This document shows, in pieces, positions 22,677 through 37,275 of a stretch of 64,000 nt of DNA (positions are counted from its first letter, which is position 1; every line of letters begins with the position of its first letter). The DNA is from Roseibium sp. Lineage in GTDB: Bacteria; Pseudomonadota; Alphaproteobacteria; Rhizobiales; Stappiaceae. The notes beneath the pieces were generated by a model. The model ran no database searches. It was not told the origin of the DNA and was given only the letters and a program-made list of their open reading frames with translations. Made by a program: the position numbers and the translations under genes. The DNA lies in NCBI GenBank assembly GCA_017643215.1, contig JAEPNV010000002.1, forward strand, positions 124,001 through 188,000, written 5' to 3'.

Positions 22677-22697
22677 TTTCCTTTCGCGGTATTTTTT

Positions 22698-22893: not shown

Positions 22894-22923
22894 GGCGCTC
22901 TCAAGGTGGACATGCCACCTGAC

Positions 22924-22999: not shown

Positions 23000-23266
23000 T
23001 ATTTTTCAATGACTTGGATGACATGATTAAAAACGTGCGCACGGTTTCGCGCACGGTGTCAGGCCCCGGGGCGCCTTGAAATGGCTTCTGCCGCGGTGCT
23101 GACCAGGCGCGCTGTCATGGCTCCAGCGGATCGGACACTACCAATTTATGACGGCCCGTGCCGGTCAAAGGACGCTACGGCGCCCTATGTCGATCCGAGG
23201 GCGGGGGACGTGAAGTGGCCGGAGCACACTTTGAACGATCCGGATTCGGCGCCGTTTCGCGGCGTT

Positions 23267-24037
23267 TTAGGCGGTGATGATGTCCAGGCCCTTTTCGCGC
23301 GCGCCGCGCAGGAAGTCCGAGGGTGCGCCGCTGTCGGTGATCAGACCGTTGGCCTCTCCCAGTCCGACGATCCGCGCGGAGGCGATATGCCCGATCTTGC
23401 TGTGATCGGCCAGGAACACGACACGCTTGGCCGCCCGCACCATCGCTTTGGCCACTTCCGCCTCGGCCCAGGACGCGTTGGTGAAGCCGCGGTCCACGTC
23501 GACGCCCGACGCGCTCAAAAGGCCGAGATCGGCGTTGATTTCCCGCAAAAGGACATCGCCCAGCGGTGCGACCAGCGAATTGACCTTGGAACGCAAGGTG
23601 CCGCCGGTCACGATCACCGAAACGCCGGGATGATCGGCGAGGATCCGGGCGACATTGATCGAGTTGGTCGCCACTACGAGGTCGGTGATGGTGGCCGGGA
23701 TGCGTGCTGCAAGCAGTTCGGCGGTCGTTCCGCTGCTCAAGAAGATCGTTTGCCCGTTGAAGACCAGTTTCAGCGCCTCGGTGACGATCCGCTCCTTCTG
23801 CCGGAGGTTCGGCGGCGTCAGCACATCGGCGCTGGCGTCGTAACGGCCGGTGAAGGCGGCAACCGCCCCGCCGCGGACCCGCCGCAACAACTGGGCGTTC
23901 TCCAGGCGGTTCAGGTCTGCGCGGATCGTCACGGTCGATACGCCAAGATCTTCGGACAATTGGGCAATGTCCACACGTCCGTTCGCCTGGAGCATGTCGA
24001 GAATACGATTCTGCCTTTCGGAAGCTTTCATTTCCAT
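23267..24037 (-). CDS. DeoR-family transcriptional regulator
   Basis: A 256-residue regulator. The N-terminal winged helix-turn-helix (about 5-60) reads RQNRILDMLQANGRVDIAQL and VSTVTIRADLNRLE. The C-terminal DeoRC sugar-phosphate sensor domain (about 75-250) contains FLSSGTTAELLA and VIVTGGTLRSKVNSLVAP. Such regulators usually repress carbohydrate operons and respond to a phosphorylated sugar. It is divergent from the BtpA-SIS-PfkB operon and is the natural candidate regulator of both operons. Start at 24037; ATG 24031 is an equally good alternative. Confidence 0.93.
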   Translation of the reverse strand: MEMKASERQNRILDMLQANGRVDIAQLSEDLGVSTVTIRADLNRLENAQLLRRVRGGAVAAFTGRYDASADVLTPPNLRQKERIVTEALKLVFNGQTIFLSSGTTAELLAARIPATITDLVVATNSINVARILADHPGVSVIVTGGTLRSKVNSLVAPLGDVLLREINADLGLLSASGVDVDRGFTNASWAEAEVAKAMVRAAKRVVFLADHSKIGHIASARIVGLGEANGLITDSGAPSDFLRGAREKGLDIITA

Positions 24038-24086
24038 CTATATGTCAAGTCACCTGTTGTTGGCACCGTTTCGCGCAAACCTTATC

Positions 24087-24146
24087 CGAACCTGGGTTCC
24101 AGGCAAATCCTAAGTCTTGCGAACGGTCTTTCGATTCAGATTGAAT
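24087..24146. promoter_or_regulatory. Candidate operator region, DeoR regulator / BtpA operon
   Basis: The 130-base divergent gap holds two short palindromes: GAACC-TG-GGTTC at 24088-24099 (overlapping CCTGG-GTT-CCAGG at 24091-24103) and ATTCA-GAT-TGAAT at 24134-24146. Either could bind the DeoR-type regulator. The second lies 21 bases before the BtpA start. Confidence 0.35.
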
Positions 24147-24167
24147 AAGGGAATACCACAAAGAACG

Positions 24168-24929
24168 ATGCGGAATCATATCGTTGCGGCGCTCCAGGTG
24201 CCGGCATTTCAAAAGACCGGTGCGCGGCCAATGAGCTGGTATGAAGACTATGTGCTTTCAAATGCGCGCACTTTCGTTGCAAACGGAATCGGCGCGATCA
24301 AGCTGCAAGACGAAACCGTGGAGCCGCAGGATGCGGCGCCGCGCACCATTGCACGGATGTCGGCTCTTGGCACTGCGCTTCTGCGCGAGTTTCCAAAACT
24401 TGACCTTGGGATCATCGTTCAAGCCCATGATCCTGCGGCGGCGATTGCGATCGCGGACGGTTGCGGGGCCGGTTTCGTGCGTTTGAAGGTGTTTACCGGC
24501 GCTGCGGTCAACGCGGAAGGCACACGGACCGCCCTTGGGCCTTCGGCGGTTGCCTACCGCGATGGAATCGGGCGGACGGATATCCGCATCTTTGCCGATG
24601 TTCACGACCGGACGGCGGTGCCGCTGGCGCCGGTTCCAAATGACGTGGCCGCGCAGTGGGCGGCAAAACTCGGCGCGGATGCCCTGGTCATTACCGGCGC
24701 CGGCTTTGAAGACACACTCAAACGGATCGAAAGCGCCCGGGCACGGGGGATCCGGGCACCGATCCTGATTGGGGGAAGCGTCACCCGCTCGAATGTCCGC
24801 CAGGCGCTGACGGCCGCCGAAGGGGTCATCGTGTCGTCGTCCTTGCGCCGCGAAGGCGCGGCGCCGGATGCGATGGACCGGTGGGACCCGGCCCGGATCC
24901 GGGCATTGATGGACGAGGTGGCCGCATGA
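24168..24929 (+). CDS. BtpA/SgcQ-family TIM-barrel protein
   Basis: About 253 residues, assigned to the BtpA family by its TIM-barrel pattern: AALQVPAFQKTG, NGIGAIKLQDETVEPQ, FVRLKVFTGAAVNAEGT, FADVHDRTA and PILIGGSVTRSNVRQAL. The family is named from a photosystem I biogenesis factor and includes E. coli SgcQ of a sugar cluster; no reaction is firmly assigned. The segment that usually reads ENFGDVPF is here LQDETVEPQ, so this is a divergent member. It is the first gene of the plus-strand operon and overlaps the next by ATGA. The start was chosen at ATG 24168 because upstream residues do not fit. Confidence 0.75.
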   Translation: MRNHIVAALQVPAFQKTGARPMSWYEDYVLSNARTFVANGIGAIKLQDETVEPQDAAPRTIARMSALGTALLREFPKLDLGIIVQAHDPAAAIAIADGCGAGFVRLKVFTGAAVNAEGTRTALGPSAVAYRDGIGRTDIRIFADVHDRTAVPLAPVPNDVAAQWAAKLGADALVITGAGFEDTLKRIESARARGIRAPILIGGSVTRSNVRQALTAAEGVIVSSSLRREGAAPDAMDRWDPARIRALMDEVAA

Positions 24930-26104
24930 CCGGGAGGCTGGACGTGCCCATATCGCCTTTGCTTGGCGCCTCGTCGCCGATCCCACCGGCCGATCAGGAC
25001 CTGGTCCGCGCGTTGACGACAGCCGAGGCGGAGCTGATCTCCGGTCTTCCAAGCGATGATCCGGGAGATCCCAAGCGGCGGCGGCGTGTCGGGCACACAC
25101 AGACAGAAATCGAGCAGCAGCCGGCCTGTGTGGCTCAGACCATCGAGCAAAACCGCCCAGTGGTCGGCGCCATCGCGCGGGAGCTTGCCGCCCGTCGTCC
25201 AAAGCGGATCGTCTTGACCGGGTGCGGCGACAGCCTGGCCTGCCACATCGGCATGCGTTTGGTGTGGGAGGCAGCGACAGGTTTGCCGGCGATTCCGGTT
25301 CAGGCGCTTGACCTTGCCTACTACCCGGGTGCGCTTATCGATGAGCAGACGGTGGTTCTTGGCCTGTCGTCCTCCGGGACGACGCCACGCACTGTCGAAG
25401 CGATGCTGACAGCCCGTCAGAAAGGCGCGGCGACCGTCGCATTGACCAACACGCCGGGCTCTTCCATCACCGATATCGCCGACCATGGGCTCTTGATCTC
25501 AGCTGAGCGCAAGGGCTGGCCGACTCAGGCCTCGACAGCGGCCATGGCGCTTGAGGTGCAGTTGGCGGGTGCGCTTGGCGCGGCGATGGGCCGGCCAGAA
25601 CCCGCCCCGGAGCTTCTGCCGGAGGCACTTGCCGGTCAGGTCGAAGCTGCGCTCGCGGCCGCAGCCGGGCCGGCGGCCGCAATTGGCCGGCGGTTGTCGG
25701 GTGACGGGCTCGTGCATCTTTGCGGCGGTGGCCCGGCATTCGCATCGGCTCTCTTTGGCGCCGCGAAGATCAAGGAATGCACGTCTGGCCACGGCCAGGC
25801 GCACCCGCTTGAGGAAGTGCATCACTACACATCGGTCAAGCCGGGCGAAAGCATGATCATTCTGGCGCCGGACGGGCCCTCACGGGCACGGGCGGCCGAT
25901 ACGGCCCGGCAGGTCCGCGCCTGGGGCGGACACACTGTCGGCATTGTCAGCGCGGGCGACGAGACGCTTTCCGCGTTGTGCGACGAGACGGTCGTCCTGC
26001 CGTCGGGCCCTGAAGCTCTGGCCGCGCTGACCTTCACAATCCCATTGCACTATATCGCGCTTCACATGGCACTCGGGGAATTTGAGAGGGCGGACAATGG
26101 CTGA
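24926..26104 (+). CDS. SIS-domain protein 1 (sugar-phosphate isomerase/deglycase-like)
   Basis: 392 residues with two SIS folds. The first contains IVLTGCGDSLACHIGMRL and LGLSSSGTTPRTVEAML; the second contains VHLCGGGPAFASALFGAAKI and LEEVHHYT. The E-x-x-H pattern in the second domain (25814-25822) resembles EFRH of fructosamine-6-phosphate deglycase FrlB and ELKH of GlmS, so ketose/aldose-phosphate amine chemistry is likely; the substrate is unknown. The gene overlaps BtpA by 4 bases and PfkB by 8. Two further SIS paralogues lie in the converging operon. Confidence 0.82.
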   Translation: MTGRLDVPISPLLGASSPIPPADQDLVRALTTAEAELISGLPSDDPGDPKRRRRVGHTQTEIEQQPACVAQTIEQNRPVVGAIARELAARRPKRIVLTGCGDSLACHIGMRLVWEAATGLPAIPVQALDLAYYPGALIDEQTVVLGLSSSGTTPRTVEAMLTARQKGAATVALTNTPGSSITDIADHGLLISAERKGWPTQASTAAMALEVQLAGALGAAMGRPEPAPELLPEALAGQVEAALAAAAGPAAAIGRRLSGDGLVHLCGGGPAFASALFGAAKIKECTSGHGQAHPLEEVHHYTSVKPGESMIILAPDGPSRARAADTARQVRAWGGHTVGIVSAGDETLSALCDETVVLPSGPEALAALTFTIPLHYIALHMALGEFERADNG

Positions 26105-27068
26105 AACGGGAGGACCGGCGCTCATTTGTCTCGGCAATCTGACGATGGACGATGTGGTCCTGCCGACGGGCGAAAAACGGCCTGGCTGCATTGGCGGCGA
26201 TGCGCTTTACGCCGTGCTGGCCGCAAGGCCCTGGGATCCAACGGCCGAGATGGTCGCACCGGTCGGCCGGGACCTGCCGCAAAGCGTGTCTGGCGGCATC
26301 CGCGACGCGAACCTGTCCGTTGCCGGACTACCGGCCCGCGACTGCCCGACGCTTCACAATCAGGTCGTCTATGACGATACCGGCGGGCGGCACTGGACGC
26401 TCTACAACGCGCCCGAGGACTTCGACACCCTGTCGCCGCGCTCCGGCGACGTGCCGGAGGCCTTTTTGGGCGCGGACCGGGTATTGATCTCTGCCATGGC
26501 CCTTCCGGCCCAGGAAGACCTGGTGCCGTTCTTCAAGAGGCAGACCGCGGCGCGCGTTGCCCTTGATCCCCAGGAAGACTACATCGCCGGCAACGTGCCC
26601 CGTCTGGCCGCTTTGATCAGCGCGGTTGACATCTTTCTGCCGAGCGAGGACGAGGTGACCAAGCTGACGGGCTGCCGCGACTGGTCGCGGGCGGCGCGTC
26701 AGTTTGCCGGAATGGGGCCGCGGATTGTGGTCATCAAGCGCGGCGGCGCCGGCGCTCTGCTCTACGACGCCGCGCGCGATATGGAATTCCACCTGCCACC
26801 CTGTCCAGGAGCACCGGTTGTCGACACAACCGGAGCCGGAGACAGCTTTTGCGGGGCATTCATGGCCGCGCTTGTAACACATCCGCCCGAAATCGCCGCT
26901 CTTGCCGGCGCTACGGCGGCGTCCTTCACCGTTGCTGGGTATGGTGCAGCGCCACTCCTTGAAACACCACCTGAGTCTGTTCGCGCCCGCTTCGCCGCAT
27001 GGCGCGATGGGATGGTGTACACGCCTGAGGGAGGCCGGCGCATGGTCCTGCGGGAGCGCGGAGCATGA
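26097..27068 (+). CDS. PfkB-family carbohydrate kinase
   Basis: Ribokinase-fold kinase of 323 residues. The N-terminal substrate motif is CIGGDALYAVLAA. The C-terminal ATP and anion-hole motif is TTGAGDSFCGAFMAAL, with the catalytic base Asp. The start at ATG 26097 has GAGAGGGCGG upstream and overlaps the SIS gene by 8 bases. In fructoselysine and related Amadori pathways a PfkB kinase (FrlD) acts just before a SIS deglycase, a pairing seen here. Ribose or nucleoside kinases are an alternative; the sequence does not distinguish them. Confidence 0.88.
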   Translation: MAETGGPALICLGNLTMDDVVLPTGEKRPGCIGGDALYAVLAARPWDPTAEMVAPVGRDLPQSVSGGIRDANLSVAGLPARDCPTLHNQVVYDDTGGRHWTLYNAPEDFDTLSPRSGDVPEAFLGADRVLISAMALPAQEDLVPFFKRQTAARVALDPQEDYIAGNVPRLAALISAVDIFLPSEDEVTKLTGCRDWSRAARQFAGMGPRIVVIKRGGAGALLYDAARDMEFHLPPCPGAPVVDTTGAGDSFCGAFMAALVTHPPEIAALAGATAASFTVAGYGAAPLLETPPESVRARFAAWRDGMVYTPEGGRRMVLRERGA

Positions 27069-28615
27069 GCGGCGTCCTGGTGAGCGGCGATCATGTGCTG
27101 CAAGGCTTTCACGGAGACACGCCGGTCATACATAGCAATGCCGCCGTCCTAATCGAGGAGGGCGTTGTCAAGCAGATCGGCCCGGCGGCGGAACTGGACC
27201 GCCACTATCCGGAGGCAAAACGCTTCGGCGGACCTGGCCAGGTCGTAATCCCCGGCCTGATCAACGCGCATCACCATGTTGGCCTGACCCCTTTCCAGCT
27301 TGGTTCGCCCGATCATCCGCTGGAGCTTTGGTTCGCCTCGCGAATGGGTCTGCGCGCGGTCGATCCCCGGCTCGACACGCTTTATTCGGCGTTCGAGATG
27401 ATCGCGTCGGGCGTCACCTGCGTCCAGCATCTCCACAGCCGCGCACCGGGCGGTCTTGAGGGCTTGCACAGCACAGCGTCGGCGGTTCTCGGCGCCTATG
27501 ACGAGATCGGTATGCGGGTCTCCTTCTCCATGGCGATCCGCGACCAGAACCGGCTGGTCTACGAGGACGACCAGGCGTTCTTGTCCCGGCTGCCGGAGGC
27601 GCTGCGCCCCGCATTGGCCGCCTATTTCGACAATTATACCGTGCCGCTCGCCAACCAGATCGCGCTGACAGATGCGCTTGAGGCCATGGTGGCCGGGCGG
27701 GAAAAACAGCGGGTGCAATTGGCTCCGTCGAACCTTCACTGGATGAGCGATGCGGCGATCGAGGCCGTGGCTGACCTCTCCGAGGCGCGGGACATGGCCA
27801 TGCACGCGCACGTCCTGGAAACACCCTATCAGTGGGAGTATGCCCGCCGCCGGACGGGCGGATCGCCGCTGGCCTATCTGGCGGAGCGCGGGCTGGTCAC
27901 CCATCGCCTGACCGTCGGCCACGGGGTCTGGATGAGCGATAGCGACGTCGACCGCTGCGCGGAGGCGGGCTGTGCCATTTGCCACAATTGCAGTTCAAAT
28001 ATGCGGCTGAAGAGCGGGATCGCCCCGGTGAACCGGTTTCTTGCCAAGGGTCTGCCCGTTGCTCTGGGGATCGATGAGGCGGGCATCAACGATGACCGGG
28101 ATATGCTGCAGGAAATGCGGCTGGTCTTGCATATGCACCGCGAGCCCGGCCTTGATGCGCCGGCGCCGACCCACGCTCAGGTCCTGCGTATGGCGAGCGA
28201 TCACGGCGCCCGGACCACGCCTTTTGGACCCACGATCGGTTCGCTTCGGCCCGGATCGGCCGGGGACTTGGTCATTCTGGACTGGCGCAAAGTGACCTGG
28301 CCGCACCAGGACCCGGCCCGGGGCCTTGATGAGGTGCTGGTGCACCGGGCCCGCCCGGCGGCGGTGCATACCGTCCTTGTCGCTGGCGAACCGGTATTGG
28401 AGAACGGCCGGTTTACCCGTATGGACCGGGACGATGTTTTAAGCGAGATTGCCGAGGCGCTTGCCACAGCGCCAGACGCTGACACCTTGGCGCGCCGGGA
28501 GCTGGCCGAGGACGTGATGCCGTTTGTGCGCGATGTCTATCGCGATTACCGTCTGCCGTCAGGCGCGCCGCATTACCGGCAAAGCAGCCGGACGTGGCCG
28601 GGGGAGGAGACGTGA
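27065..28615 (+). CDS. COG0402-type metal-dependent amidohydrolase
   Basis: 516-residue enzyme of the amidohydrolase superfamily, in the branch that deaminates N-heterocycles (guanine, 8-oxoguanine, S-adenosylhomocysteine) or dechlorinates triazines. Metal ligands visible are HxH (His69, His71 in INAHHHVG), a histidine in MHAHVLETPYQ, a histidine in VGHGVW and the aspartate in GIDEAGIND. CHNCSSNMRLKSG is the usual CPxSNxxLxSG segment with Cys-His at its start. It overlaps the kinase by ATGA and the next gene by GTGA. The exact substrate cannot be read from sequence. Confidence 0.85.
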   Translation: MSGVLVSGDHVLQGFHGDTPVIHSNAAVLIEEGVVKQIGPAAELDRHYPEAKRFGGPGQVVIPGLINAHHHVGLTPFQLGSPDHPLELWFASRMGLRAVDPRLDTLYSAFEMIASGVTCVQHLHSRAPGGLEGLHSTASAVLGAYDEIGMRVSFSMAIRDQNRLVYEDDQAFLSRLPEALRPALAAYFDNYTVPLANQIALTDALEAMVAGREKQRVQLAPSNLHWMSDAAIEAVADLSEARDMAMHAHVLETPYQWEYARRRTGGSPLAYLAERGLVTHRLTVGHGVWMSDSDVDRCAEAGCAICHNCSSNMRLKSGIAPVNRFLAKGLPVALGIDEAGINDDRDMLQEMRLVLHMHREPGLDAPAPTHAQVLRMASDHGARTTPFGPTIGSLRPGSAGDLVILDWRKVTWPHQDPARGLDEVLVHRARPAAVHTVLVAGEPVLENGRFTRMDRDDVLSEIAEALATAPDADTLARRELAEDVMPFVRDVYRDYRLPSGAPHYRQSSRTWPGEET

Positions 28616-29502
28616 GCGCAGATGAACGTGATCTGATCGGCTATGGCGCAACGCCGCCGGACGTCACCTGGCCAGGCGGTGCTCGCGTAGCCGTTTCAAT
28701 TGTCGTCAATGTCGAGGAGGGGGCCGAACTTTCGATTCTTGACGGCGATGAGCGCAACGAGAGCATTTACGAGGCGCGCGAGGAAGTCGTCGGCGCGCCG
28801 GACCCGTGCATGACCAGCCACTTCGGCTACGGTCCCCGGCGCGGGTACTGGCGGATCGCCGAGTGTTTGGCCCGCCACGGGGTTCAGGCGACCTTTTCCA
28901 CCTGCGGCCGTGCGGCCGAAGCAACGCCGTGGCTGATCAAGGATGCGGCCGAACGCGGCCACGAGATTTCCTGCCATGGCTGGCGCTGGGAACGGCACGC
29001 GGGCATGGACGAAGCGACCGAGCGTGACATCATCGCAAAGACGCATGCCACCTTGGCGCAGATTTCGGGCATTCCGCCGGTCGGCTGGCACACCCGTTCC
29101 GCGGCGACCGTCAACACCCGGCGGCTCCTCATCGAACATGGCGGGTTCTTGTATGATTCGGACGCATATGACGACGACCTGCCGTATCTCACCGGTGGAC
29201 ATGACCACCCGCATGTGATCTTGCCCTATGCGTTCGACACCAACGACATGCGGTTCCAGCCAGGTGGCGGTTTCATCACCGGCGAGGATTTTGCCAGCTA
29301 CTGCCTCACGGCTTTCGACCGCCTGAGCCGGGAAGGGCGCGGCGCGATGATGTCGGTGGGTTTGCACTTGAGGCTGATCGGCAAGCCAGCACGGATTGAC
29401 GGTCTCGACATGCTGCTGGAGGGGATTCATCAACGCGGCGGCGCCTGGATCGCGACCCGCCGCGAAATCGCCGCGCATTGGCGTCAGACCTTCGCGCCCT
29501 GA
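28612..29502 (+). CDS. PuuE-like allantoinase/polysaccharide-deacetylase fold protein 1
   Basis: 296 residues with the NodB/polysaccharide-deacetylase fold. The metal-binding TFDDG motif is replaced by VNVEEGAE (EEG at 28714-28722) and the H-x3-H motif by CHGWRW. These replacements are typical of PuuE, the metal-independent allantoinase, so hydrolysis of a cyclic ureide or amide is more likely than sugar deacetylation. Other family segments are YGPRRGYWRI, GWHTRSAATVNTRRLL and FLYDSDAYDDDLPY. The start is GTG at 28612, backed by GGAGGAG and overlapping the amidohydrolase stop. It is the last gene of the plus-strand operon; its end overlaps the convergent racemase gene by 19 bases. Confidence 0.85.
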   Translation: MSADERDLIGYGATPPDVTWPGGARVAVSIVVNVEEGAELSILDGDERNESIYEAREEVVGAPDPCMTSHFGYGPRRGYWRIAECLARHGVQATFSTCGRAAEATPWLIKDAAERGHEISCHGWRWERHAGMDEATERDIIAKTHATLAQISGIPPVGWHTRSAATVNTRRLLIEHGGFLYDSDAYDDDLPYLTGGHDHPHVILPYAFDTNDMRFQPGGGFITGEDFASYCLTAFDRLSREGRGAMMSVGLHLRLIGKPARIDGLDMLLEGIHQRGGAWIATRREIAAHWRQTFAP

Positions 29503-30143
29503 AGCATCAAGGCCATCCGCCGGGCGGCTTCCGGCACCGGTTCGATGAGCGGCAATGGGCTTTCAGGCGAAAGCTGCCGGGCCACTGTGGCGAGCGGGCC
29601 CCCGCCAATGACAACGGCCTCGGCGCCGTCCTCGGCGCACGCTTTAATGGCGACGCGCATTTCCCGTTGCAGGCGGTCGGGATTGGACATGACGGCCAGC
29701 GGCGGTCCTTTTGTCACCTGTACGGAAATCAGTTGATCGCCATGTCCATACGCATGGGCGGCCTCCCGGATCCGTTCGATCAGATCCGGCGTTGTGGTGG
29801 CGATCGAAAACGCCCGTCCGCCGCGCGCGGCTTCCGCGATGCCGGCCTCCGCGATGCCAAGGACGGGGCAGTCGAGACGCTCAGCCAACCGCTTCCGGCC
29901 CGGATCTCCAAAAGCAGCAACAATGACGCCGGCGGTTGCGTGCGGTACGTTGCAGCCCGCAACGGCGCGGGAGGCTGCGTCTAAAAGGTCAGGCGTCGTG
30001 ATCACATCGGGTCCACCGGGGGTCGAGACGGCTTTCAGGCGGAGCGAAGGGCACGCCTGGCGGGCAATCCGCGCCATGGCGCGGGTCGTGGCCGTGCTGC
30101 CGTTCGGATTGATCAGAAGGACCGGCCCTTTCTCCGGGCTCAT
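29484..30143 (-). CDS. Hydantoin/allantoin-racemase-like protein lacking catalytic cysteines
   Basis: 219 residues of the Asp/Glu/hydantoin racemase superfamily: LLINPNGSTATTRAM at the N-terminus, AAFGDPGRKRLAE, VLGIAEAGIAEAA, FSIATTTPDLIERI and VIGGGPLA. Known hydantoin racemases carry a cysteine in ACFGDPG and another in LGCAGM; here the positions are Ala (29907-29920) and Gly (about 29600). A two-cysteine racemisation mechanism is therefore not possible, and a related lyase, hydrolase or binding role must be considered. It is the last gene of the minus-strand operon and overlaps the upstream gene by ATGA. Confidence 0.8.
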   Translation of the reverse strand: MSPEKGPVLLINPNGSTATTRAMARIARQACPSLRLKAVSTPGGPDVITTPDLLDAASRAVAGCNVPHATAGVIVAAFGDPGRKRLAERLDCPVLGIAEAGIAEAARGGRAFSIATTTPDLIERIREAAHAYGHGDQLISVQVTKGPPLAVMSNPDRLQREMRVAIKACAEDGAEAVVIGGGPLATVARQLSPESPLPLIEPVPEAARRMALMLQGAKV

Positions 30144-31039
30144 CTTATCGCCCCGGAAAACGCACGCGCGATGTCGCGGCGGGGGGCGATCCAGACCGCA
30201 TCCCCCAACTCGTTCAGCATGGTCAGTGTGTCGGCGAAGGCCGAAAACCGGGCGGGCCGCCCGGTTATGCGCAGGTGATAACCAACGTTAAAAATCGCCG
30301 ATTTTCCCCGGGCCGCCTCGTCGATCAGTGTTTTAAGACCATCGGACACATAGCCCGTCATGTCGTGTGCCCGCACAAAGCCATTGGGATGGAAGAACTT
30401 CATGTCGTTGGTATCGAGCGCATAAGGCACGACAAGCAGGTCCTTATGATCCGGATCGCGATAGGGCAGGTCGTCGTCGAAAGCGTTGGACGTGTAAAAA
30501 TAGCCGAGTTCGGACAGGATCTTGCGTGTCCATGGGCTTTCGCTGCCGCGGCAGAAAAAGCCCTCGGGGGCCGTTCCCGTGGCGTCCCGGAGGGCCGCTT
30601 CGCACCGTCTCAGATCGGCTGTCTCAGCGTCGCGCGACGCATAGTCGGAATGCGGGTGCCAGCGCCAGCCATGACAGGCAAGCTCATGTCCGCGGCGGGC
30701 GACCGCGCGCGCGGCCTCCGGGCTGCGTTCGACCGCGCGTCCGCAGCAGAAAAACGTCGCGGTCAATCCAGCCCGGTCAAGGGCGTCCAGCATCCGCCAC
30801 AGACCGGCGCGCATGCCATAGGCGAAAATTTGTTCCTGGCCAATGTCCCGGTCGCCTTCGCGCACCACGCTAATGACCTCTCCAATGCGCTCGCTTACCG
30901 GATCTCCGTCGCCGACTTGAAGCTCGGCGCCCTCTTCGAAGTTGACGACAATCGAGACGGCAACACGCGCACCGTTCGGCCAGACGATGTCCGGCCGGTT
31001 TTCGCCATAGCCCCGAAGGTCACGGATGGGGCTGCTCAT
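30140..31039 (-). CDS. PuuE-like allantoinase/polysaccharide-deacetylase fold protein 2
   Basis: 299 residues, paralogous to the protein encoded at 28612-29502. It shares an N-terminus of the type RGYGENRPDIVWPNGARVAVS, VNFEEGAE in place of TFDDG, CHGWRW (30659-30676) and FYTSNAFDDDLPY. The 'deacetylase' metal ligands are again replaced in the PuuE manner. Having one copy in each convergent operon suggests two related ring-opening or amide-cleaving steps, or two substrate variants. It overlaps both neighbours by 4 bases, implying translational coupling to the permease upstream and the racemase-like gene downstream. Confidence 0.85.
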   Translation of the reverse strand: MSSPIRDLRGYGENRPDIVWPNGARVAVSIVVNFEEGAELQVGDGDPVSERIGEVISVVREGDRDIGQEQIFAYGMRAGLWRMLDALDRAGLTATFFCCGRAVERSPEAARAVARRGHELACHGWRWHPHSDYASRDAETADLRRCEAALRDATGTAPEGFFCRGSESPWTRKILSELGYFYTSNAFDDDLPYRDPDHKDLLVVPYALDTNDMKFFHPNGFVRAHDMTGYVSDGLKTLIDEAARGKSAIFNVGYHLRITGRPARFSAFADTLTMLNELGDAVWIAPRRDIARAFSGAIR

Positions 31040-31884
31040 TTTGCGAGCCGTTCCAATCCGACCGAACGCGACAGGACCAGCATGATGACAAAAGCAAACA
31101 GGATTTCGAGGCTGGAGAGGGCCGCGACCATCGGGCTGCTGTCATATTGCACGAGATTGTAAAGCTCCACCGACAGCGGCCGCCCGCGCGGAGAGGCTGT
31201 GAATAGCGCCACGGTGAGATTGTCGAAGGATTCAATGAACACGAACGCCGCCCCGGCGACGATCGCGGGGATGATCTGACGAAGCGTGATTTGAACGAAT
31301 GTCCGTTTGCGGGTGGCGCCGAGCGAAAGGGAGGCTTCCTCCAAGGCCGGATCGAGCAGTTGGAGCTGCGCCATGACAAGCCGCACCGCAAAGGGAAGGC
31401 AGAAGACCGTCAGCCCAAGGATCAGCATCAGGTCGGATTGCCGGAACGCGATGTAGGCGCCGAAAAACAAAAGGGCAACGCCGATGACCATCCCGGGGAT
31501 CATCTGCGGGGCCACGATCAGCGCGCCGGCGAACGCCTTGCCCGGATAGCGGCCGCGCACCAGCGAAAACGCGGCCGGCACGGCGAGTGTCAGCGCGATG
31601 GCCGTAGACCAAACTGAGATCCGCAGGCTGGTAATCGCCGAATCGATGATCTGCTGACGGGAAAACAAATCCGCATACCATTTCAATGTAAAGCCCTGCG
31701 GCGGGAAGGTGATGTAGGCGGTTTCTGTAAACGAGATCATCACCACGATGAGGCTTGGCGCGATCAGGAGAAGCAGCGCAAACGCAGCGAGCGCCCAAAT
31801 CAGGCCAAACCCGACCCGGTCGATCCAATCCGCCAGTATGGTGCCGGAAGGTCCGGTCGTGATTATCTCGGCCGAGTGCGTCAT
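31036..31884 (-). CDS. ABC transporter permease, PotC-like
   Basis: 282-residue inner-membrane permease with about six membrane segments. The BPD_transp_1 EAA loop region reads EEASLSLGATRKRTFVQITL. It belongs to the polyamine/opine/iron transporter group (COG1177). The N-terminal helix is LIWALAAFALLLLIAPSLIV. It overlaps the preceding permease gene and the following PuuE-like gene by 4 bases each. It pairs with the PotB-like permease to form the translocation pore. Confidence 0.92.
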   Translation of the reverse strand: MTHSAEIITTGPSGTILADWIDRVGFGLIWALAAFALLLLIAPSLIVVMISFTETAYITFPPQGFTLKWYADLFSRQQIIDSAITSLRISVWSTAIALTLAVPAAFSLVRGRYPGKAFAGALIVAPQMIPGMVIGVALLFFGAYIAFRQSDLMLILGLTVFCLPFAVRLVMAQLQLLDPALEEASLSLGATRKRTFVQITLRQIIPAIVAGAAFVFIESFDNLTVALFTASPRGRPLSVELYNLVQYDSSPMVAALSSLEILFAFVIMLVLSRSVGLERLAK

Positions 31885-32771
31885 GCCGCCTCCTTCTGGC
31901 TCCAGCGCATCACGCGATTGCCGGCAAGTCCGATGAGCAAGATGAAGACGAAGCAGCTTCCCAGCAACAAGAGCGCCAGCATTGCGCCCTTGCTCCAGTT
32001 CAAAACGACCACGATCTGCTCATAGACCTGAACGGCGAGCGTGGTAAAGCCCCCGCCGCCCAGAAGCTGCGGGATGATGAAGTTGGTGTAGGACAGGGCA
32101 AAGACGATCGTCAGGCCGGCGACGATGCCGGGTGTCGACAGCGGCAGCACGATCTTGAAGAAAGTCGCCAGCCGGCTTGCGCCCATGCCGAGCGAGGCGG
32201 CCTCCATGTTGCGGTCGCGGGCGGCCAGCACGGTGATCAGCGGCAGCACCATGAACGGCAAATGCACTTGGGTCATCCCGACGATCACCGCGAAATCCGT
32301 GTTCAGCATCCGGATCGGCCGGGAAATCACGCCAAGTTCGATCAAGGTGGAATTGACCACGCCGCGACGCCCGCCGAGCAGCACCAGCCAGGCATAGGTG
32401 CGCACAATGGCGCTGGTCAGGAGCGGCGAGATGGTCAGGACCAGGATGAGAAGCCGCATGGTGCGCCCGCTCTCGCTGTAGAGATAGGCGAGCGGATAGG
32501 CGAGCAGAAAGCACAGCAGGGTCGACAGGATGCCGATATAGAAAGACTTCCACCAGACCCACCAGAACAGGTCGTCCTGAAGCGTGCCGGTCAGATAGCG
32601 CAAGGTGAAGCCGCTGTCCTGGATCCGGCCCCGTTCAATTTCGGTAAAGCCGAACGACAACAACACCGCCATAGGGATGATGAAAAAGATCGTGAGGAAC
32701 ACGAAGGCGGGCACGGCCGGCCATATGCCGCGCCCGTCGCGGAACCTGGTCCAGAATGCTGCCGCCATCAT
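31881..32771 (-). CDS. ABC transporter permease, PotB-like
   Basis: 296-residue permease (COG1176) with about six membrane segments. The EAA loop is MEAASLGMGASRLATFFKIV, followed by LPLSTPGIVAGL. The start is taken at ATG 32771, which overlaps the ATPase stop by ATGA; a second ATG follows directly and the frame extends upstream to 32795 without support. It forms the pore together with the PotC-like protein. Confidence 0.92.
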   Translation of the reverse strand: MMAAAFWTRFRDGRGIWPAVPAFVFLTIFFIIPMAVLLSFGFTEIERGRIQDSGFTLRYLTGTLQDDLFWWVWWKSFYIGILSTLLCFLLAYPLAYLYSESGRTMRLLILVLTISPLLTSAIVRTYAWLVLLGGRRGVVNSTLIELGVISRPIRMLNTDFAVIVGMTQVHLPFMVLPLITVLAARDRNMEAASLGMGASRLATFFKIVLPLSTPGIVAGLTIVFALSYTNFIIPQLLGGGGFTTLAVQVYEQIVVVLNWSKGAMLALLLLGSCFVFILLIGLAGNRVMRWSQKEAA

Positions 32772-33784
32772 GCAGTCCCCGGCAGGGGAACACACGCATC
32801 CGGATTGCGGATAGTGATTTCAACGGTGCTGCCGACAGCAAGCGGTTCTTGCCGGTCCCGGTCCACCAGCGCGCGCAGGATTGTGCCATCGGCAAGCGCA
32901 ATCTCGTATTCCATGGCTGGCCCCGTCAGCCGGGCAAAAACAACCTCGCCTTTGACGCCGCCGCCTTGAGAGGAAGGGGACAGAGCGAAATTCTCAGGGC
33001 GGATCACAAGCGCACCGCTGCCGTTCAAGGATTTATGCGCGGTCTTGAAACGCTCCGCGCTTTTCCGCGGAAGGATGTTGGCCGCGCCGACAAAGTCGGC
33101 CACGAAGGCCGAGGCCGGCTTGTCATAGATCTGGTCCGGAGCGGCGAATTGCTGGATCCGTCCCTCGGCCATCACCGCGATGCGGTCACTGATGGTGAGA
33201 GCTTCGGCCTGGTCATGGGTGACACAGACCGCGGTAATCCCGACATGTTTCACGATCTTGCGCAGTTCGATCTGCATTGCGCCGCGCAGCTTGGCATCGA
33301 GCGCATTGAAGGCCTCGTCCATCAAAAGCACCTTCGGATGCAGCACCAGCGAGCGTGCCAGCGCGACACGCTGCTGCTGCCCGCCGGACAATGACTTGGG
33401 ATACCGGCGGGCGAATTCGGTCAGCGAGACGAGGTCAAGCACCTTATCGACTTCGGCGCGGATCGTCTCCTTCGCCGTCTTTCGGGCTTTGAGACCATAG
33501 GCGACATTTTCCGCGACGGTCATATGCGGAAACAAGGCGTAGTTTTGAAACACGAACCCGACATCGCGGCGGTTTGGCGGCAGGCGCGTGACATCCTGGT
33601 TCGCCAGAACCAGGCTGCCGCTGTCCGGCGTTTCGAAACCGGCGATGCATCGCAAGAGCGTGGTCTTACCACAGCCGGAGGCGCCCAGCAGCGTCACGAC
33701 TTCACCGGTGTCCACTGAAATTGTGCAATCGCGCAGGACGTGGTTCGACCCGAAATGCTTGTTGACCCCGTTCGCCTCAATCAT
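32768..33784 (-). CDS. ABC transporter ATPase, PotA-like
   Basis: 338-residue nucleotide-binding subunit. Walker A is GASGCGKTTLL, the signature is LSGGQQQRVALARSL, and the H-loop is VCVTHDQAEAL. A C-terminal TOBE domain (about 255-335) is present. The Walker B/D-loop stretch reads LLMDEAFNALD instead of the usual LLLDEPLSALD: the catalytic Glu is kept but the following Pro is Ala. TAAGGA provides a ribosome-binding site. It energises uptake of the binding-protein ligand and lies between the SIS2 gene and the permeases. Confidence 0.95.
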   Translation of the reverse strand: MIEANGVNKHFGSNHVLRDCTISVDTGEVVTLLGASGCGKTTLLRCIAGFETPDSGSLVLANQDVTRLPPNRRDVGFVFQNYALFPHMTVAENVAYGLKARKTAKETIRAEVDKVLDLVSLTEFARRYPKSLSGGQQQRVALARSLVLHPKVLLMDEAFNALDAKLRGAMQIELRKIVKHVGITAVCVTHDQAEALTISDRIAVMAEGRIQQFAAPDQIYDKPASAFVADFVGAANILPRKSAERFKTAHKSLNGSGALVIRPENFALSPSSQGGGVKGEVVFARLTGPAMEYEIALADGTILRALVDRDRQEPLAVGSTVEITIRNPDACVPLPGTA

Positions 33785-33793
33785 GTTTTTTCC

Positions 33794-34876
33794 TTAGACC
33801 GCCGTCTTGGCGTTGCCTGCCTGTGCCAAAAGCGACCGGCGGGTCAGCATGCGGCTTGTTTTGAACCGCTTGGTGTCGTTCTTGAGATGCATCCTTAGGT
33901 TCGGATCAAATCCGGTCGCTTGCGCCCAATGATAGCCGAAAAACTGCATCGCCGCTGTTGCCATCGATAACGGGTCGACGCCAGGTGTAGCTTCCCATGT
34001 GAAGGTCCAGTCGCCGCCCGTGTCCATGCCTTGAGGGGCGACGGTCAGGCTGCGCACACCCATGTTGCGCAAAGCCTTTGCCGATTCCGCGGCAATTCCT
34101 GCGACGGCCGGGCTGGTCGGCAGCAGGACGACGACTTCGCCTTCGGACATGGTCCAGAACTGGCGATGGGCGAATTCCTCTATGTCGTCGCTCCAGACGG
34201 GCGTGCCCGACAGTTCGACGATCTTTGCGGCGCCATAGTCGGCGATGGCCAGACCGGCAGGTCCACAGGACAGATACCGCAGTCCCGGCGCGCCAGCGCA
34301 GGCTTGCGCGACCTTAAGGGAGATTGAGTCTGCGTCGGGCAGGGCCTTTTCCAAGACATTGGCGGTTGCGCGCAGTCCGGCGGCCAAATCATCCGGTGGC
34401 GTTCCCCGGTTCAACCCGGCAAACAGGCCGAGCATCGCCCGCGTTGCCAGAAAACTGGATGTGCCGCACAAGAACGGCGCGATGTCCGTCAATTGCAGAC
34501 TGATATTGGGAAGGCCGAGTTCGGCGAGCCGGCCGCCTTCGCTGTTGGTCAGGCAAATCGCACCGCCGCACGCGTTGTTCGCGACTTCGGCCGCCTCCAC
34601 GGTCCGGTCGACATTGCCGGACATGGAAATGGCAATGGCCCGGTCGGCGGACGTCAGTTGCGGGCCGACGTCACCCAGGATCTCCAGGCCCGAGGCCGGT
34701 GTAATCCCGTCGGCGGCAAGGCTTCGCGCGGCAAACCAGCCATCGCCGCTGCCGAATGCGATCAGCCGGCCATCCGGTCCGGGCACGAGATGCTCCCGGC
34801 AAAAGGCGTCGATATCATTGAGCCGCGCGGCAAGGCCCCGTAGTACATCGGGTTGGCGGCGGATATCGGTCAGCAT
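33794..34876 (-). CDS. SIS-domain protein 2
   Basis: 360 residues with two SIS folds. The first contains LIAFGSGDGWFAARSL and AISMSGNVDRTVEAAEVA; the second contains LRYLSCGPAGLAIADYGAAK and DDIEEFAHRQFW. The E-x-x-H motif (complement of about 34160-34180) is shared with the other two SIS proteins here and with FrlB/GlmS. The start at 34876 begins MLTDIRRQPDVLRGLAAR; upstream codons of the same frame overlap the binding-protein gene and are not coding. Its start codon lies inside a strong hairpin. No clear ribosome-binding site is visible. Confidence 0.8.
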   Translation of the reverse strand: MLTDIRRQPDVLRGLAARLNDIDAFCREHLVPGPDGRLIAFGSGDGWFAARSLAADGITPASGLEILGDVGPQLTSADRAIAISMSGNVDRTVEAAEVANNACGGAICLTNSEGGRLAELGLPNISLQLTDIAPFLCGTSSFLATRAMLGLFAGLNRGTPPDDLAAGLRATANVLEKALPDADSISLKVAQACAGAPGLRYLSCGPAGLAIADYGAAKIVELSGTPVWSDDIEEFAHRQFWTMSEGEVVVLLPTSPAVAGIAAESAKALRNMGVRSLTVAPQGMDTGGDWTFTWEATPGVDPLSMATAAMQFFGYHWAQATGFDPNLRMHLKNDTKRFKTSRMLTRRSLLAQAGNAKTAV

Positions 34877-34900
34877 CGGGGCGGCGTTGGCCGCCCCGAT
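34875..34900 (-). promoter_or_regulatory. Perfect hairpin overlapping the SIS2 start codon
   Basis: Inverted repeat ATCGGGGCGGC, loop GTTG, GCCGCCCCGAT: 11 paired bases with no mismatch, in the 31-base gap after the binding-protein gene. The start codon of SIS2 (34874-34876) is partly within the stem. Such hairpins downstream of ABC binding-protein genes commonly protect the upstream mRNA or reduce expression of downstream genes; either fits here. There is no T-tract on the minus strand. Confidence 0.75.
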
Positions 34901-34907
34901 GTCCGGT

Positions 34908-35948
34908 TCAGGTTGCGAATTCACGGTCGAACCGATCCACCAGTTCCGGACGCACCTTGACGATTTCGGCCCAATTGACCGTTTGCAGGGACGCGACCTC
35001 TTCGGGCGTTGATGGTGTGTAGGGCCGCGCGGCCTCCGGCACGTCGACGCCCTGGACGGTGACGCCGAAGTAGTAGGGCGCGTTGGCGGCGAGTTCCTGG
35101 TACTCGGTGCTGATGATGCCATCCATCCAGCGATAGACGAGCTCGCTGTCGCGGGCGCCGGTGATTTCCGACATGACCGACAAGATGGCGACGGGCCCCG
35201 GATCCGGCTTGACGAATTTGATCGGCAGACCCTTTTCCGCCGCGACGGCGGCATCGTTGTTCCACAACGGTGCGATCGCGATTTCGCCGCGTTCCATCAT
35301 CTGCGCAAGGATCCGGGGGCTGCGGCCGGCCAGGGGGTTCAGTTCCTTCAGTTTCTGCCAGGCGGGCTCCAGATCGGTTTCAGATCCGCCGAAGATTTTC
35401 GCCGTGATCGCCAGCGTCCCGAGCCCAAGGTTCGACGAGGTCCGGCAAATGCCGACCATATCGGCATATTCTTCGTTCCACATGTCGGCCCAGCTGGTCG
35501 GCGGCGTTTCCACCATTTCCTCGTTGTAGGCAAGGCCAATCAGCGAGAATGTCGCCGGGACGCCGTAGCCCTGGGTTTTGTCCCAGAATTCGGGAACCAC
35601 ATTGCCCGCGTTTTCCAGGCGGGAACGGTCGAGCTCTTGAATATAGCCGTCGCGGATCGCGATCAGGTGCGGTGGTTCGCCGTTGGGCATGGCATCATAG
35701 GGGCTGAAGCCCTGGGCGGCCTTGATCTGGGCGACGATATCCTGGCTTTCACTCGGCACAAGCCGCACGGTCAGGCCGGAGATCTCGTTTTGCAGCTTGT
35801 CGCCCAGCCAGCGATGAGGCTCTTGCAAAGCGCCGCCGTAACTGATGATCACCAGTTCCCGGTCAGAGGCGCGCACGATCGACGGCGCTGCCAGAACCGC
35901 GCCCGCGGCCAGGGCCGTCTTTGTAAAGCTTCGGCGTGTAATGCTCAT
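34908..35948 (-). CDS. Tat-exported solute-binding protein, PotD-like
   Basis: 346-residue periplasmic binding protein (extracellular solute-binding family 1, COG0687). The signal peptide [21 protein letters not shown] carries a twin-arginine motif (TRRSFTK), so it is probably exported folded. The mature body has ELVIISYGGALQEPHRWLGD, AMPNGEPPHLIAIRDG and RWMDGIISTEYQ. The start at 35948 is supported by AGGAGAG; codons upstream to 35999 are non-conserved. It defines the substrate of the adjacent transporter. The PotD class binds polyamines, opines and other small cations or amides. Confidence 0.92.
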   Translation of the reverse strand: MSITRRSFTKTALAAGAVLAAPSIVRASDRELVIISYGGALQEPHRWLGDKLQNEISGLTVRLVPSESQDIVAQIKAAQGFSPYDAMPNGEPPHLIAIRDGYIQELDRSRLENAGNVVPEFWDKTQGYGVPATFSLIGLAYNEEMVETPPTSWADMWNEEYADMVGICRTSSNLGLGTLAITAKIFGGSETDLEPAWQKLKELNPLAGRSPRILAQMMERGEIAIAPLWNNDAAVAAEKGLPIKFVKPDPGPVAILSVMSEITGARDSELVYRWMDGIISTEYQELAANAPYYFGVTVQGVDVPEAARPYTPSTPEEVASLQTVNWAEIVKVRPELVDRFDREFAT

Positions 35949-36004
35949 ATTCACTCTCCTGTTCTGGCCGCCAGGGCGACCGGTTGTGCCGGCGGGCACG
36001 CACC

Positions 36005-37186
36005 TTAAAGGCCTGCTTGCATTCCGCCGCCGCGGATCAGCCAGTAGTCATCGGTACGGCGCAGCGGAATTTCGGGAACCTTGCGCCGCCAGGCCAATTG
36101 CAGCGCCAAAAGCTGGGCGGGTACGTGGAAGGTCAGTGGCGATAGGAGCTCGTCGGAAACGCCGGGCATTTCGACAACGGCTTCCGCATCGTTATGTGCA
36201 AGAAGCGACGGATCGTCGGTCAACAGCACTGCGCGCCCTCCGGCTTGACGAATGCCCTTCAGCATTTCGCCGGCCCGGTCCGCCGAATGACCTTTCGGTG
36301 CCAGCACGAGCACGATGGCCGCGCGGCCCCAGTCGAGCGTCAGGAAATACTGAAGATGCGCCCATTCCTCGAGATCTTGCGCCACGCCGTTGATAGGCAC
36401 CTGTTCGTGGAACTTCGCGGCGCTGTAATCCGCGCTCCCGCGGCTTGGCCCCGCGCCAAGCACCCAGATTGTCCGCGCACCGTCCATCGACATGGCGAGG
36501 CCGCGCATCAAAGGTTCGGCGGCTTCGGCCGTGTTGCCGATGTTTGCGATCACCACGGCGATACGTTCGCGCCAATCGGCGACTTCCGAATCAGTCATGG
36601 TTCCGGCCTCGCGGGCAGCGTGAAGCCCCAACGCGTAAAGGGCCGTCAGCCCGGCCATATACTCGGCCGCGTTCAAGAAGACGCGAGGCGACCACGCCGG
36701 CGGCTCCCCGTTCAAAGCGACTGGCCGGTGCAGGATCGTGTCAGCGCTCTTGGCGAGCGGCCCATCGGCTTTGCCGACGACGCCAAACGAGGGCACGTGA
36801 AGCTTGCGGGCAAGCGCCGCCGTCTCCCGGGTGCGTGTTGAGCCTCCGGAATTGGAGACGGCGATCATGACGGCCTGGTCCGCGGTATGGGGCAACTCGT
36901 AGCGGGCGCACTCGATCGATGTCAGCGCGCGAAAATCAAGGCCGCTCCATTGCCGCATGGCCGGCGCGGCGCTGACCGCGGCAAACAGGCTGTCGCCTGA
37001 TCCCGACAGCAAGAACCTGTCCCGGTCCTCCCGTTTTGAAACCGCCACCAGGTCCCGGGCGGTGGCCCGGGCGTTGTCGAAGATCTGGGTGACATCCACG
37101 CTTGCCGCGGCTTGCGCCATGTCGCGGACAAAGGACCTCTCGCCGCGGATCACTTCGGTACGTATCTGTCCGATGTCGAACCTCAT
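36005..37186 (-). CDS. SIS-domain protein 3
   Basis: 393 residues with two SIS folds, first gene of the minus-strand operon. The first fold has FLLSGSGDSLFAAVSAAPAM and MIAVSNSGGSTRTRETAALA; the second has IWVLGAGPSRGSADYSAAKF and QDLEEWAHLQYF. The same E-x-x-H placement as in SIS1 and SIS2 suggests a shared catalytic origin. A sugar-phosphate aminotransferase, isomerase or deglycase activity is plausible. A gap of 56 bases precedes the binding-protein gene. Confidence 0.82.
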   Translation of the reverse strand: MRFDIGQIRTEVIRGERSFVRDMAQAAASVDVTQIFDNARATARDLVAVSKREDRDRFLLSGSGDSLFAAVSAAPAMRQWSGLDFRALTSIECARYELPHTADQAVMIAVSNSGGSTRTRETAALARKLHVPSFGVVGKADGPLAKSADTILHRPVALNGEPPAWSPRVFLNAAEYMAGLTALYALGLHAAREAGTMTDSEVADWRERIAVVIANIGNTAEAAEPLMRGLAMSMDGARTIWVLGAGPSRGSADYSAAKFHEQVPINGVAQDLEEWAHLQYFLTLDWGRAAIVLVLAPKGHSADRAGEMLKGIRQAGGRAVLLTDDPSLLAHNDAEAVVEMPGVSDELLSPLTFHVPAQLLALQLAWRRKVPEIPLRRTDDYWLIRGGGMQAGL

Positions 37187-37229
37187 TTCGTTTGTGACCT
37201 CTTAATCACCGCGATTTTTGGTTCGCGAT

Positions 37230-37275
37230 GTGTGCATGCGCTTTTTATAATTTGACTTTCTATTCTCAAAAAAAG
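37230..37275 (-). promoter_or_regulatory. Candidate promoter of the SIS3-transporter operon
   Basis: On the minus strand an AT-rich run holds TTGAGA followed after 14-16 bases by TATAAA/TAAAAA, within 90 bases of the SIS3 start. A loose inverted repeat GCGA-N8-TCGC at 37210-37225 lies between it and the gene. Confidence 0.35.

What the first reader, a model, noticed from the sequence alone, without database searches (positions are those of the whole stretch)
23267..37186. Uncharacterised two-operon catabolic system combining sugar-kinase/SIS chemistry with ureide-type hydrolases
Thirteen structural genes plus a DeoR regulator form two convergent, tightly overlapping operons: BtpA-SIS1-PfkB-amidohydrolase-PuuE1 and SIS3-PotD-SIS2-PotA-PotB-PotC-PuuE2-racemase-like. 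Known: PfkB kinase plus SIS deglycase is the core of fructosamine (Amadori) catabolism, and PuuE allantoinase with racemase and COG0402 deaminase families belongs to purine/ureide catabolism. I know of no described pathway joining both with a BtpA protein. Inference: import of an N-linked sugar conjugate of a purine- or hydantoin-like ring (or an oxidised nucleoside), ring opening or deamination, then phosphorylation and sugar release.
Basis: partly seen in the sequence, partly recalled or inferred. Interest (0 to 1): 0.88.

Follow-up and report, generated by a model that had tools for sequence, protein, structure and literature searches.

The report
Unknown nucleoside-like sugar-base breakdown operons
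A rare, mobile-looking set of fourteen bacterial genes appears to import an unusual sugar-linked ring compound resembling a nucleoside, open the ring and release the sugar through a phosphorylation route that includes BtpA, a widespread protein of unknown function.

Summary
In detail: 13 structural genes plus a DeoR regulator lie in two convergent, mostly overlapping operons. The layout is not chance. It recurs gene for gene, except SIS3, in another family (G057, 48-78% identity), and parts recur in 43 loci from a pattern-based scan: 35 of 43 have SIS1, PfkB and BtpA side by side, 20 of 43 have deaminase+PuuE1+PuuE2.

The system is modular. A sugar module (PfkB, SIS, BtpA) is joined to alternative base modules and importers. 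In five sister clusters not cut by a contig end, relatives of the sugar module sit with a BMP (PnrA-like) importer, a cyanuric-acid-hydrolase-type ring opener and an FAD hydroxylase; three of the five also carry PuuE. One runs on into ureidoglycolate lyase and deoxyribose-phosphate aldolase. This favours a nucleoside-like conjugate over a fructosamine or polyamine.

Corrections: the 'racemase' lacks both catalytic cysteines in 22 of 22 rows; the PotD-like protein lacks the polyamine-binding acids; both PuuEs miss the allantoinase cut-off. BtpA models as a ribulose-phosphate-type barrel. Substrate, step order and BtpA chemistry remain inferred. No paper joining these families was found in the library searched. 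New variant of a known kind; interest 0.6.

The parts
23267..24037 (-). DeoR/AgaR-type transcriptional regulator, divergent from operon 1
   Evidence: PF00455 151 bits, PF08220 57 bits; AgaR model 164 bits, below its cut-off of 260; 67% identical in G057
24168..24929 (+). BtpA-family phosphosugar-type TIM barrel (start uncertain; ORF open from 24117)
24881..26104 (+). SIS1: GlmS-like double SIS protein with the catalytic Glu and His in place (start uncertain)
   Evidence: PF01380 102 bits; alignment to GlmS 1moq; E299 and H315 in 36 of 36 rows
26082..27068 (+). PfkB-family sugar/nucleoside kinase
   Evidence: PF00294 89.8 bits; best NCBIfam model ribokinase 64.7 bits, below cut-off
27065..28615 (+). 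AHY: amidohydrolase of the TRZ/ATZ aminohydrolase group, metal ligands intact
   Evidence: PF01979 134 bits; six proposed metal/catalytic positions invariant in 25 of 25 rows; PDB relatives MTA/SAH deaminase, AtzA, 8-oxoguanine deaminase
28594..29502 (+). PuuE1: PuuE-like cyclic-amide hydrolase
   Evidence: TIGR03212 296 bits, cut-off 424.6; PuuE structure 3cl6 and relative 1z7a
29484..30143 (-). RAC: Asp/Glu/hydantoin racemase fold without the two catalytic cysteines
   Evidence: PF01177 126 bits; A77 and G181 at the Cys positions of 3qvj, 22 of 22 rows
30140..31039 (-). PuuE2: second PuuE-like hydrolase, distinct from PuuE1
   Evidence: TIGR03212 251 bits, cut-off 424.6; 44% identical to PuuE1
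31036..31884 (-). ABC permease, PotC-like
   Evidence: NF007047 123 bits, below cut-off
31881..32795 (-). ABC permease, PotB-like
   Evidence: NF007044 159 bits, below cut-off
32768..33784 (-). ABC ATPase, PotA/PhnT-like
   Evidence: TIGR03265 356 bits, TIGR01187 338 bits, both below cut-off
33794..34876 (-). SIS2: separate SIS clade with catalytic Glu and His in place
   Evidence: PF01380 38.6 bits; E221 and H237 in 21 of 21 rows; own clade 100/100
34908..35999 (-). PotD-like solute-binding protein with non-polyamine pocket residues
   Evidence: Invariant R140/S143 in place of the polyamine-binding acids; model pLDDT 93, fold search
36005..37186 (-). SIS3: third SIS protein, absent from the G057 copy
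   Evidence: PF01380 59 bits; no separate SIS3 hit in L019; loosely nearest the SIS of BMP-type clusters, long branch

Best explanation
The locus encodes uptake and breakdown of a nucleoside-like sugar conjugate of a nitrogen heterocycle, probably an atypical or oxidised base. Inferred route: the PotABCD-like transporter imports it; the AHY aminohydrolase deaminates the ring; PuuE1 and PuuE2 open cyclic amide or hydantoin-type rings, with RAC helping in an unknown, non-racemase way; PfkB phosphorylates the sugar; SIS1, SIS2 and SIS3, with the phosphosugar barrel BtpA, isomerise and cleave the sugar-nitrogen bond so that sugar phosphate enters central metabolism. Shown here by computation: gene content, conserved linkage, modularity, intact SIS and AHY motifs, the BtpA fold, the missing racemase cysteines and the non-polyamine PotD pocket. 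Inferred: substrate class, order of steps, and the chemistry of BtpA and RAC.
For: Whole arrangement but SIS3 kept in G057. SIS1 and PfkB beside BtpA in 35 of 43 loci; of 43 loci AHY 27, PuuE1 24, PuuE2 21, RAC 18, PotABCD complete 25. AHY relatives (41-52% identity, 7 of 55 plasmid records read) lie beside C-N hydrolases, amidases, a racemase-family protein, creatininase or cytosine deaminase, twice with a 62% PuuE1 relative and a Pot-type importer, and no SIS, PfkB or BtpA is detectable in those stretches: base and sugar modules are separable. A second BtpA set (6 of 394 order genomes, plus Mesorhizobium huakuii) has regulator-PfkB-SIS-BtpA followed by a BMP importer; G342's contig starts inside BtpA. 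The other 5 of 6 lie beside AtzD, FAD hydroxylase and epimerase genes, and 3 of these 5 beside window-type SIS1, PfkB and PuuE1. G311 continues with ureidoglycolate lyase, DeoC (144 bits, cut-off 117) and ALDH. BtpA fold: ribulose-phosphate-type barrel. In the two haloarchaeal records read (of three hit) BtpA adjoins a carbohydrate kinase.
Against: The window has no BMP importer, nucleoside hydrolase or phosphorylase among these 14 genes; its importer belongs to the polyamine/GABA/opine group, which I do not know to carry nucleosides. BMP proteins are not all nucleoside receptors: the only curated model hit by the one scored is a putative B6 receptor, 90 bits, below its cut-off of 400. AtzD could mean triazine rather than nucleoside breakdown. 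DeoC is in 2 and AllA in 1 of the sister clusters; two of five (G086, G323) have no PuuE in the stretches read. No window enzyme reaches an equivalog cut-off, among the models listed, that would fix a reaction.
Confidence: 0.48

Rival explanations
1. Amadori/opine route: the substrate is a fructosamine (ketosamine) of an amino acid or lactam; PfkB and the SIS proteins work like FrlD/FrlB, and PuuE, AHY and RAC degrade a cyclised amine part.
Against: FrlB and FrlD models score 29 and 29.7 bits against cut-offs of 430 and 247. Sister clusters carry AtzD, AllA, DeoC and BMP importers, which this route does not need. No relatives of SIS1, SIS2 or RAC in 72,556 plasmid records at the E-values used, so no opine-plasmid link was seen.
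Confidence: 0.22
2. Triazine or pyrimidine-ring catabolism with an incidental sugar: the base is the real substrate and the sugar module handles an N-glycoside formed elsewhere.
For: AHY is in the TRZ/ATZ group and the sister clusters hold cyanuric acid amidohydrolase above its equivalog cut-off in the three scored (454, 443, 402 vs 360 bits) and an amidase with an allophanate-hydrolase C-terminal domain in G366.
Against: AtzD was found in none of the 43 window-type loci or the window. The sugar module is the most constant part of the set.
Confidence: 0.12
3. Two independent catabolic operons (a sugar operon and a ureide operon) that share a chromosomal hot spot.
For: The locus is a variable interval between lon and nuo.
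Against: The genes are interleaved: SIS2 and SIS3 lie in the transporter/PuuE2 operon, AHY and PuuE1 in the BtpA operon, with short overlaps; this is kept in G057 and rearranged but still joint in 20 of 43 loci with AHY+PuuE1+PuuE2.
Confidence: 0.08

Closest known systems
Fructosamine catabolism (FrlD kinase + FrlB SIS deglycase; FraB)
   Same: A PfkB kinase with SIS proteins whose catalytic Glu/His pair is present (the FraB residues are recalled)
   Different: Far below FrlB/FrlD cut-offs; adds BtpA, PuuE, AHY and RAC; three SIS proteins
Ureide/purine breakdown (PuuE allantoinase, allantoin racemase, 8-oxoguanine deaminase)
   Same: The PuuE, Asp/Glu racemase and TRZ/ATZ-type families are all present
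   Different: PuuEs below the equivalog cut-off, racemase cysteines absent, no oxidase among the 14 genes, joined to sugar chemistry
BtpA/SgcQ family (E. coli sgc operon and cyanobacterial BtpA, both recalled)
   Same: Pfam family
   Different: Window and sister BtpAs share K105, D142 and D145-R146, missing in the genome's own SgcQ-like copy; joined to PfkB+SIS instead of a PTS (sgc PTS recalled)
Haloarchaeal non-carboxylating pentose bisphosphate pathway (PMC9700705; only abstract start and passages from a term search seen)
   Same: A PfkB-family kinase used for nucleoside-derived sugar
   Different: Uses a phosphorylase, R15P isomerase and Ru1P aldolase; the paper's main text has no BtpA or SgcQ
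Lower s-triazine pathway (AtzD, AtzF)
   Same: AtzD, and in G366 an amidase with allophanate-hydrolase C-terminus, occur in the sister BMP-type clusters
   Different: AtzD absent from the window cluster; sister clusters add importer, kinases, SIS and BtpA

Membership tests
Fructosamine (Frl/Fra) catabolism | SIS protein at FrlB equivalog level | tested here: not met
   SIS1 29 bits vs 430; no FrlB hit for SIS2 or SIS3 at E 0.001
Fructosamine (Frl/Fra) catabolism | PfkB at FrlD equivalog level | tested here: not met
   29.7 bits vs 247
Fructosamine (Frl/Fra) catabolism | Catalytic Glu and His of the SIS active site | tested here: met
   E299/H315 in 36 of 36 SIS1 rows, E221/H237 in 21 of 21 SIS2 rows, aligned pair in SIS3; mapped on GlmS for SIS1
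PuuE allantoinase | TIGR03212 equivalog score | tested here: not met
   296.4 and 251.2 vs 424.6 bits
Allantoin/hydantoin racemase | Two catalytic cysteines | tested here: not met
   Ala and Gly at both places, 22 of 22 rows, not all independent
TRZ/ATZ-type aminohydrolase (COG0402) | Metal and catalytic residues HxH, HxxE, H, D | tested here: met
   Invariant in 25 of 25 rows; their roles are recalled
TRZ/ATZ-type aminohydrolase (COG0402) | Any equivalog-level substrate assignment | tested here: not met
   Best 196 bits vs 540; 8-oxoguanine deaminase 173 vs 532; 25 of 27 models listed
BtpA family (PF03437) | Pfam gathering score | tested here: met
   90.8 vs 30 bits
BtpA/SgcQ subfamily TIGR00259 | NCBIfam cut-off | tested here: not met
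   99 vs 153 bits; sister BtpA of L101 does reach it, 191 bits
Ribulose-phosphate-binding barrels | Fold | tested here: met
Polyamine ABC receptor PotD/PotF | Acidic ligand residues | tested here: not met
   Aligned positions hold invariant R140 and S143 and, in the profile, Ser; which residues bind polyamine is recalled
Opine receptors MotA/AgtB | Fold and ligand residues | tested here: inconclusive
BMP-importer nucleoside clusters | BMP importer in the cluster | tested here: not met
   None in the window cluster; 4 BMP matches elsewhere in the genome
Any of the above | Substrate turnover | not testable with these tools
   Needs purified enzymes

The most novel reading that the evidence does not exclude
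A nucleosidase-free way to dismantle damaged nucleosides: the base of an oxidised guanine nucleoside (cyanuric-acid, hydantoin or spirodihydantoin type) is deaminated and opened while still on the sugar; PfkB phosphorylates the exposed glycosylamine; BtpA, a HisA/TrpF-like barrel, moves it to the ketosamine (Amadori step); and an SIS deglycase releases sugar phosphate. This would give the BtpA/SgcQ family a reaction and reveal a dedicated catabolic route for oxidised nucleic-acid debris.
Probability: 0.13. Interest if true: 0.85.

Novelty: new variant of a known kind. Interest (0 to 1): 0.6.

Why it matters
BtpA/SgcQ proteins are widespread, and no natural close relative of this BtpA has a solved structure in the PDB copy searched: the best hits are designed TIM barrels and a partial match to tryptophan synthase alpha chain. 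Recurrent partners (PfkB, SIS) and alternating base modules give a concrete, testable reaction space. If the substrate is an oxidised or otherwise atypical nucleoside, this would be a dedicated environmental route for recycling damaged nucleic-acid bases, which I do not know to be described.

Tried and rejected
Plain polyamine import: rejected on the aligned pocket residues. Hydantoin/allantoin racemase: rejected, cysteines absent; a racemase-family protein in L037 does keep both. Opine-plasmid link: window BtpA has one distant plasmid hit (33%), SIS1, SIS2 and RAC none, SIS3 two distant ones. Viral contigs: no BtpA relative. Order of L069: only L069's own genome of 295 at E 1e-35. Weaker BtpA relatives of the own genus and order (L105-L111, 24-33% to the Mesorhizobium BtpA) showed no PfkB-SIS-BtpA triplet. 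Promoter scan: none found, 2.6 expected; terminator-like sites at chance level, 15 vs 13.8. Repeats of the tRNA ends as island boundaries: none at up to 4 mismatches. Oxidised-nucleoside catabolism in print: 0 papers hold spiroiminodihydantoin, guanidinohydantoin, catabolism and bacteria together. Joint descriptions: 0 papers; two searches listed 9 and 7 papers by partial terms, of which only titles and abstract starts were seen, and none of these names such a cluster. One search listed 20 of 218 papers for BtpA or SgcQ, several on an unrelated Brucella effector; those were not opened.

Caveats on counts: the 43 loci are those whose DNA matched two peptide patterns, not a census. One search counted genes by identity thresholds anywhere in the DNA held, without a coverage filter; the AHY hits of L061, L064, L073 and L076 are pieces at the edge of the locus; several loci are cut by contig ends (L054, L055, L067, L075, L078 and others). 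'Beside' means same strand and start within 3.5 kb. L059's BtpA match contains a stop and was left out of alignment A2 (39 rows with the window); L052, L055, L063 and L079 were also not given to A2. Family rows mix the 43 loci with L019, L027-L029; L029 and L070 are from contigs of the same length and appear to be one record, L054/L055 one bin. In one search the row named mSIS_L103 is the sequence of L099, and SIS3 sits on a long branch. Neighbour genes were called by a simple script; not all were given a family search. Plasmid gene tables are incomplete, so rechecked them with tblastn.
Full report
What is there. The window holds 13 structural genes and a DeoR regulator at 23267-37186 in two convergent operons: BtpA-SIS1-PfkB-AHY-PuuE1 (+) and SIS3-PotD-SIS2-PotA-PotB-PotC-PuuE2-RAC (-). 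Nine of the 13 junctions overlap, four of them by 4 bases.

It is more than chance. In G057, a genome of another family of the same order, every gene but SIS3 is present in the same order and orientation at 48-78% identity. BtpA relatives at E 1e-30 are rare: 7 of 397 genomes of the order and 1 of 398 drawn from the phylum, the own genome. A scan of genome contigs with seven BtpAs returned 43 loci, nearly all named as alphaproteobacteria, plus one Oscillospiraceae bin (L069) and two contigs of one bin labelled Acidobacteria. Of the 43, SIS1 and PfkB sit beside BtpA on the same strand in 35; AHY occurs in 27, PuuE1 24, PuuE2 21, SIS2 19, RAC 18, DeoR 17, complete PotABCD 25, AHY+PuuE1+PuuE2 together 20 (thresholds and truncations under Tried and rejected). 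Of the eight without the triplet, three are short contigs (L054, L055, L078), one is L059, and four (L040, L043, L044, L050) are a variant with SIS2-DeoR|BtpA; two of these, L040 and L044, were checked and carry another amidohydrolase and a family-5 (dipeptide-type) binding protein.

Modularity. AHY relatives (41-52%) occur without the sugar genes: with a nitrilase-type hydrolase and importer (Klebsiella, Paraburkholderia, Methylobacterium), with a 62% PuuE1 relative and Pot-type importer (Methylobacterium, Salipiger), with a racemase-family protein and amidase (Leptolyngbya), with creatininase and nucleoside deaminase family proteins (R. leguminosarum), or with codA (Pleomorphomonas); no SIS, PfkB or BtpA was detected in these seven stretches (7 of 55 matching records were read). 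So the base module stands alone elsewhere.

Sister clusters. The one plasmid hit of the window BtpA (33%) is in Mesorhizobium huakuii: UTRA regulator, kinase, SIS, BtpA, BMP binding protein, ATPase, two permeases. The same eight-gene order occurs in 5 of 394 order genomes, and a sixth (G342) shows BtpA-BMP-ABC-permeases on a contig that starts inside BtpA. In three of the six, window-type SIS1 (45-50%), PfkB (49-52%) and PuuE1 (44-46%) lie directly next to it; G086 and G323 show no PuuE in the stretches read. The five not cut short all carry AtzD, an FAD hydroxylase and an epimerase nearby; an amidase-like gene is seen in four of the five, not in G339. AtzD exceeds the cyanuric acid amidohydrolase equivalog cut-off in the three scored (454, 443, 402 vs 360); the FAD hydroxylases resemble urate hydroxylase HpxO only weakly (59 and 77 vs 500). 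G339 reads NMT1-type importer-AtzD-FAD hydroxylase-epimerase-SIS1-PfkB-PuuE1, convergent with the BMP operon, an architecture like the window's. G311 adds AllA, DeoC (above cut-off) and an aldehyde dehydrogenase; DeoC recurs in G323. In L069, SIS1-PfkB-BtpA follow a Bmp lipoprotein and meet a convergent nucleoside hydrolase.

Interpretation. A constant sugar module (kinase, SIS, phosphosugar barrel) coupled to interchangeable ring-opening modules and importers is what a family of pathways for sugar-linked nitrogen heterocycles would look like. BMP importers, DeoC, AllA and PuuE point to nucleoside-like substrates; AtzD and AHY point to unusual amino- or oxo-rings, such as oxidised purines. That cyanuric-acid, hydantoin and spirodihydantoin nucleosides arise from oxidised guanosine is recalled, not from a call. 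The window itself has no BMP importer, so for it the assignment is by relation to its sisters. The bolder proposal, BtpA as an Amadori isomerase ahead of SIS cleavage, rests only on fold and gene logic.

History. The cluster sits between tRNA-Val and tRNA-Asp in a lon-nuoB interval that spans 2.3-27.4 kb in the 14 genus genomes, own included, where both genes share a contig (own: 17.1 kb; two others are split). None of 36 same-genus genomes has a close BtpA (best 34% identity). Cluster G+C is 63.7% against 59.6% for lon and 59.5% for the nuo region. This fits horizontal gain, but no integrase or boundary repeat was shown.

Literature. Searches for the family combinations found no paper; the library holds open-licence PMC papers only. 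PMC9700705 was seen by abstract start and term search only.

Noticed in passing
window 22216-39322 (lon/hupB to nuoB): Variable interval between lon and nuoB, flanked inside by tRNA-Val (22924-22999) and tRNA-Asp (38479-38555); 2.3-27.4 kb in 14 genus genomes, so a likely insertion hot spot.
   Followed up: partly
G000:C11:262000-281900 (L080): The genome's second BtpA is SgcQ-like and lies among M42 peptidase, enolase-family and FGGY kinase genes, with sugar-ABC-like ORFs named by eye.
   Followed up: partly
G000:C39:138184-139062 (L125 9170-10081): A third PuuE-like protein outside the cluster, beside an AraC-family regulator; by eye it looks more like canonical PuuE.
   Followed up: partly
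L061 14883-15818; L073 14885-15820; L046 10797-11774: Related flavin amine-oxidoreductase-like genes beyond BtpA in three loci (73% and 41% to L061), about 0.1-4 kb downstream.
   Followed up: partly
L038 5778 onwards: A second racemase-fold protein without the two cysteines (33% to RAC), in a neighbouring Pot-type cluster.
   Followed up: no
L113 about 1.0 kb (G311): A 32% relative of SIS3 lies on the other strand some 14 kb from the SIS1 of the G311 sister cluster.
   Followed up: no
L122 8100-10074 (Streptosporangium plasmid): BtpA-SIS pair near 7-deazaguanine-synthesis and aminoglycoside-phosphotransferase-family genes, perhaps a biosynthetic use of the same enzymes.
   Followed up: no
L121 8983-10753; L123 7989-9709: Haloarchaeal plasmid BtpA genes convergent with a carbohydrate kinase gene.
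   Followed up: partly
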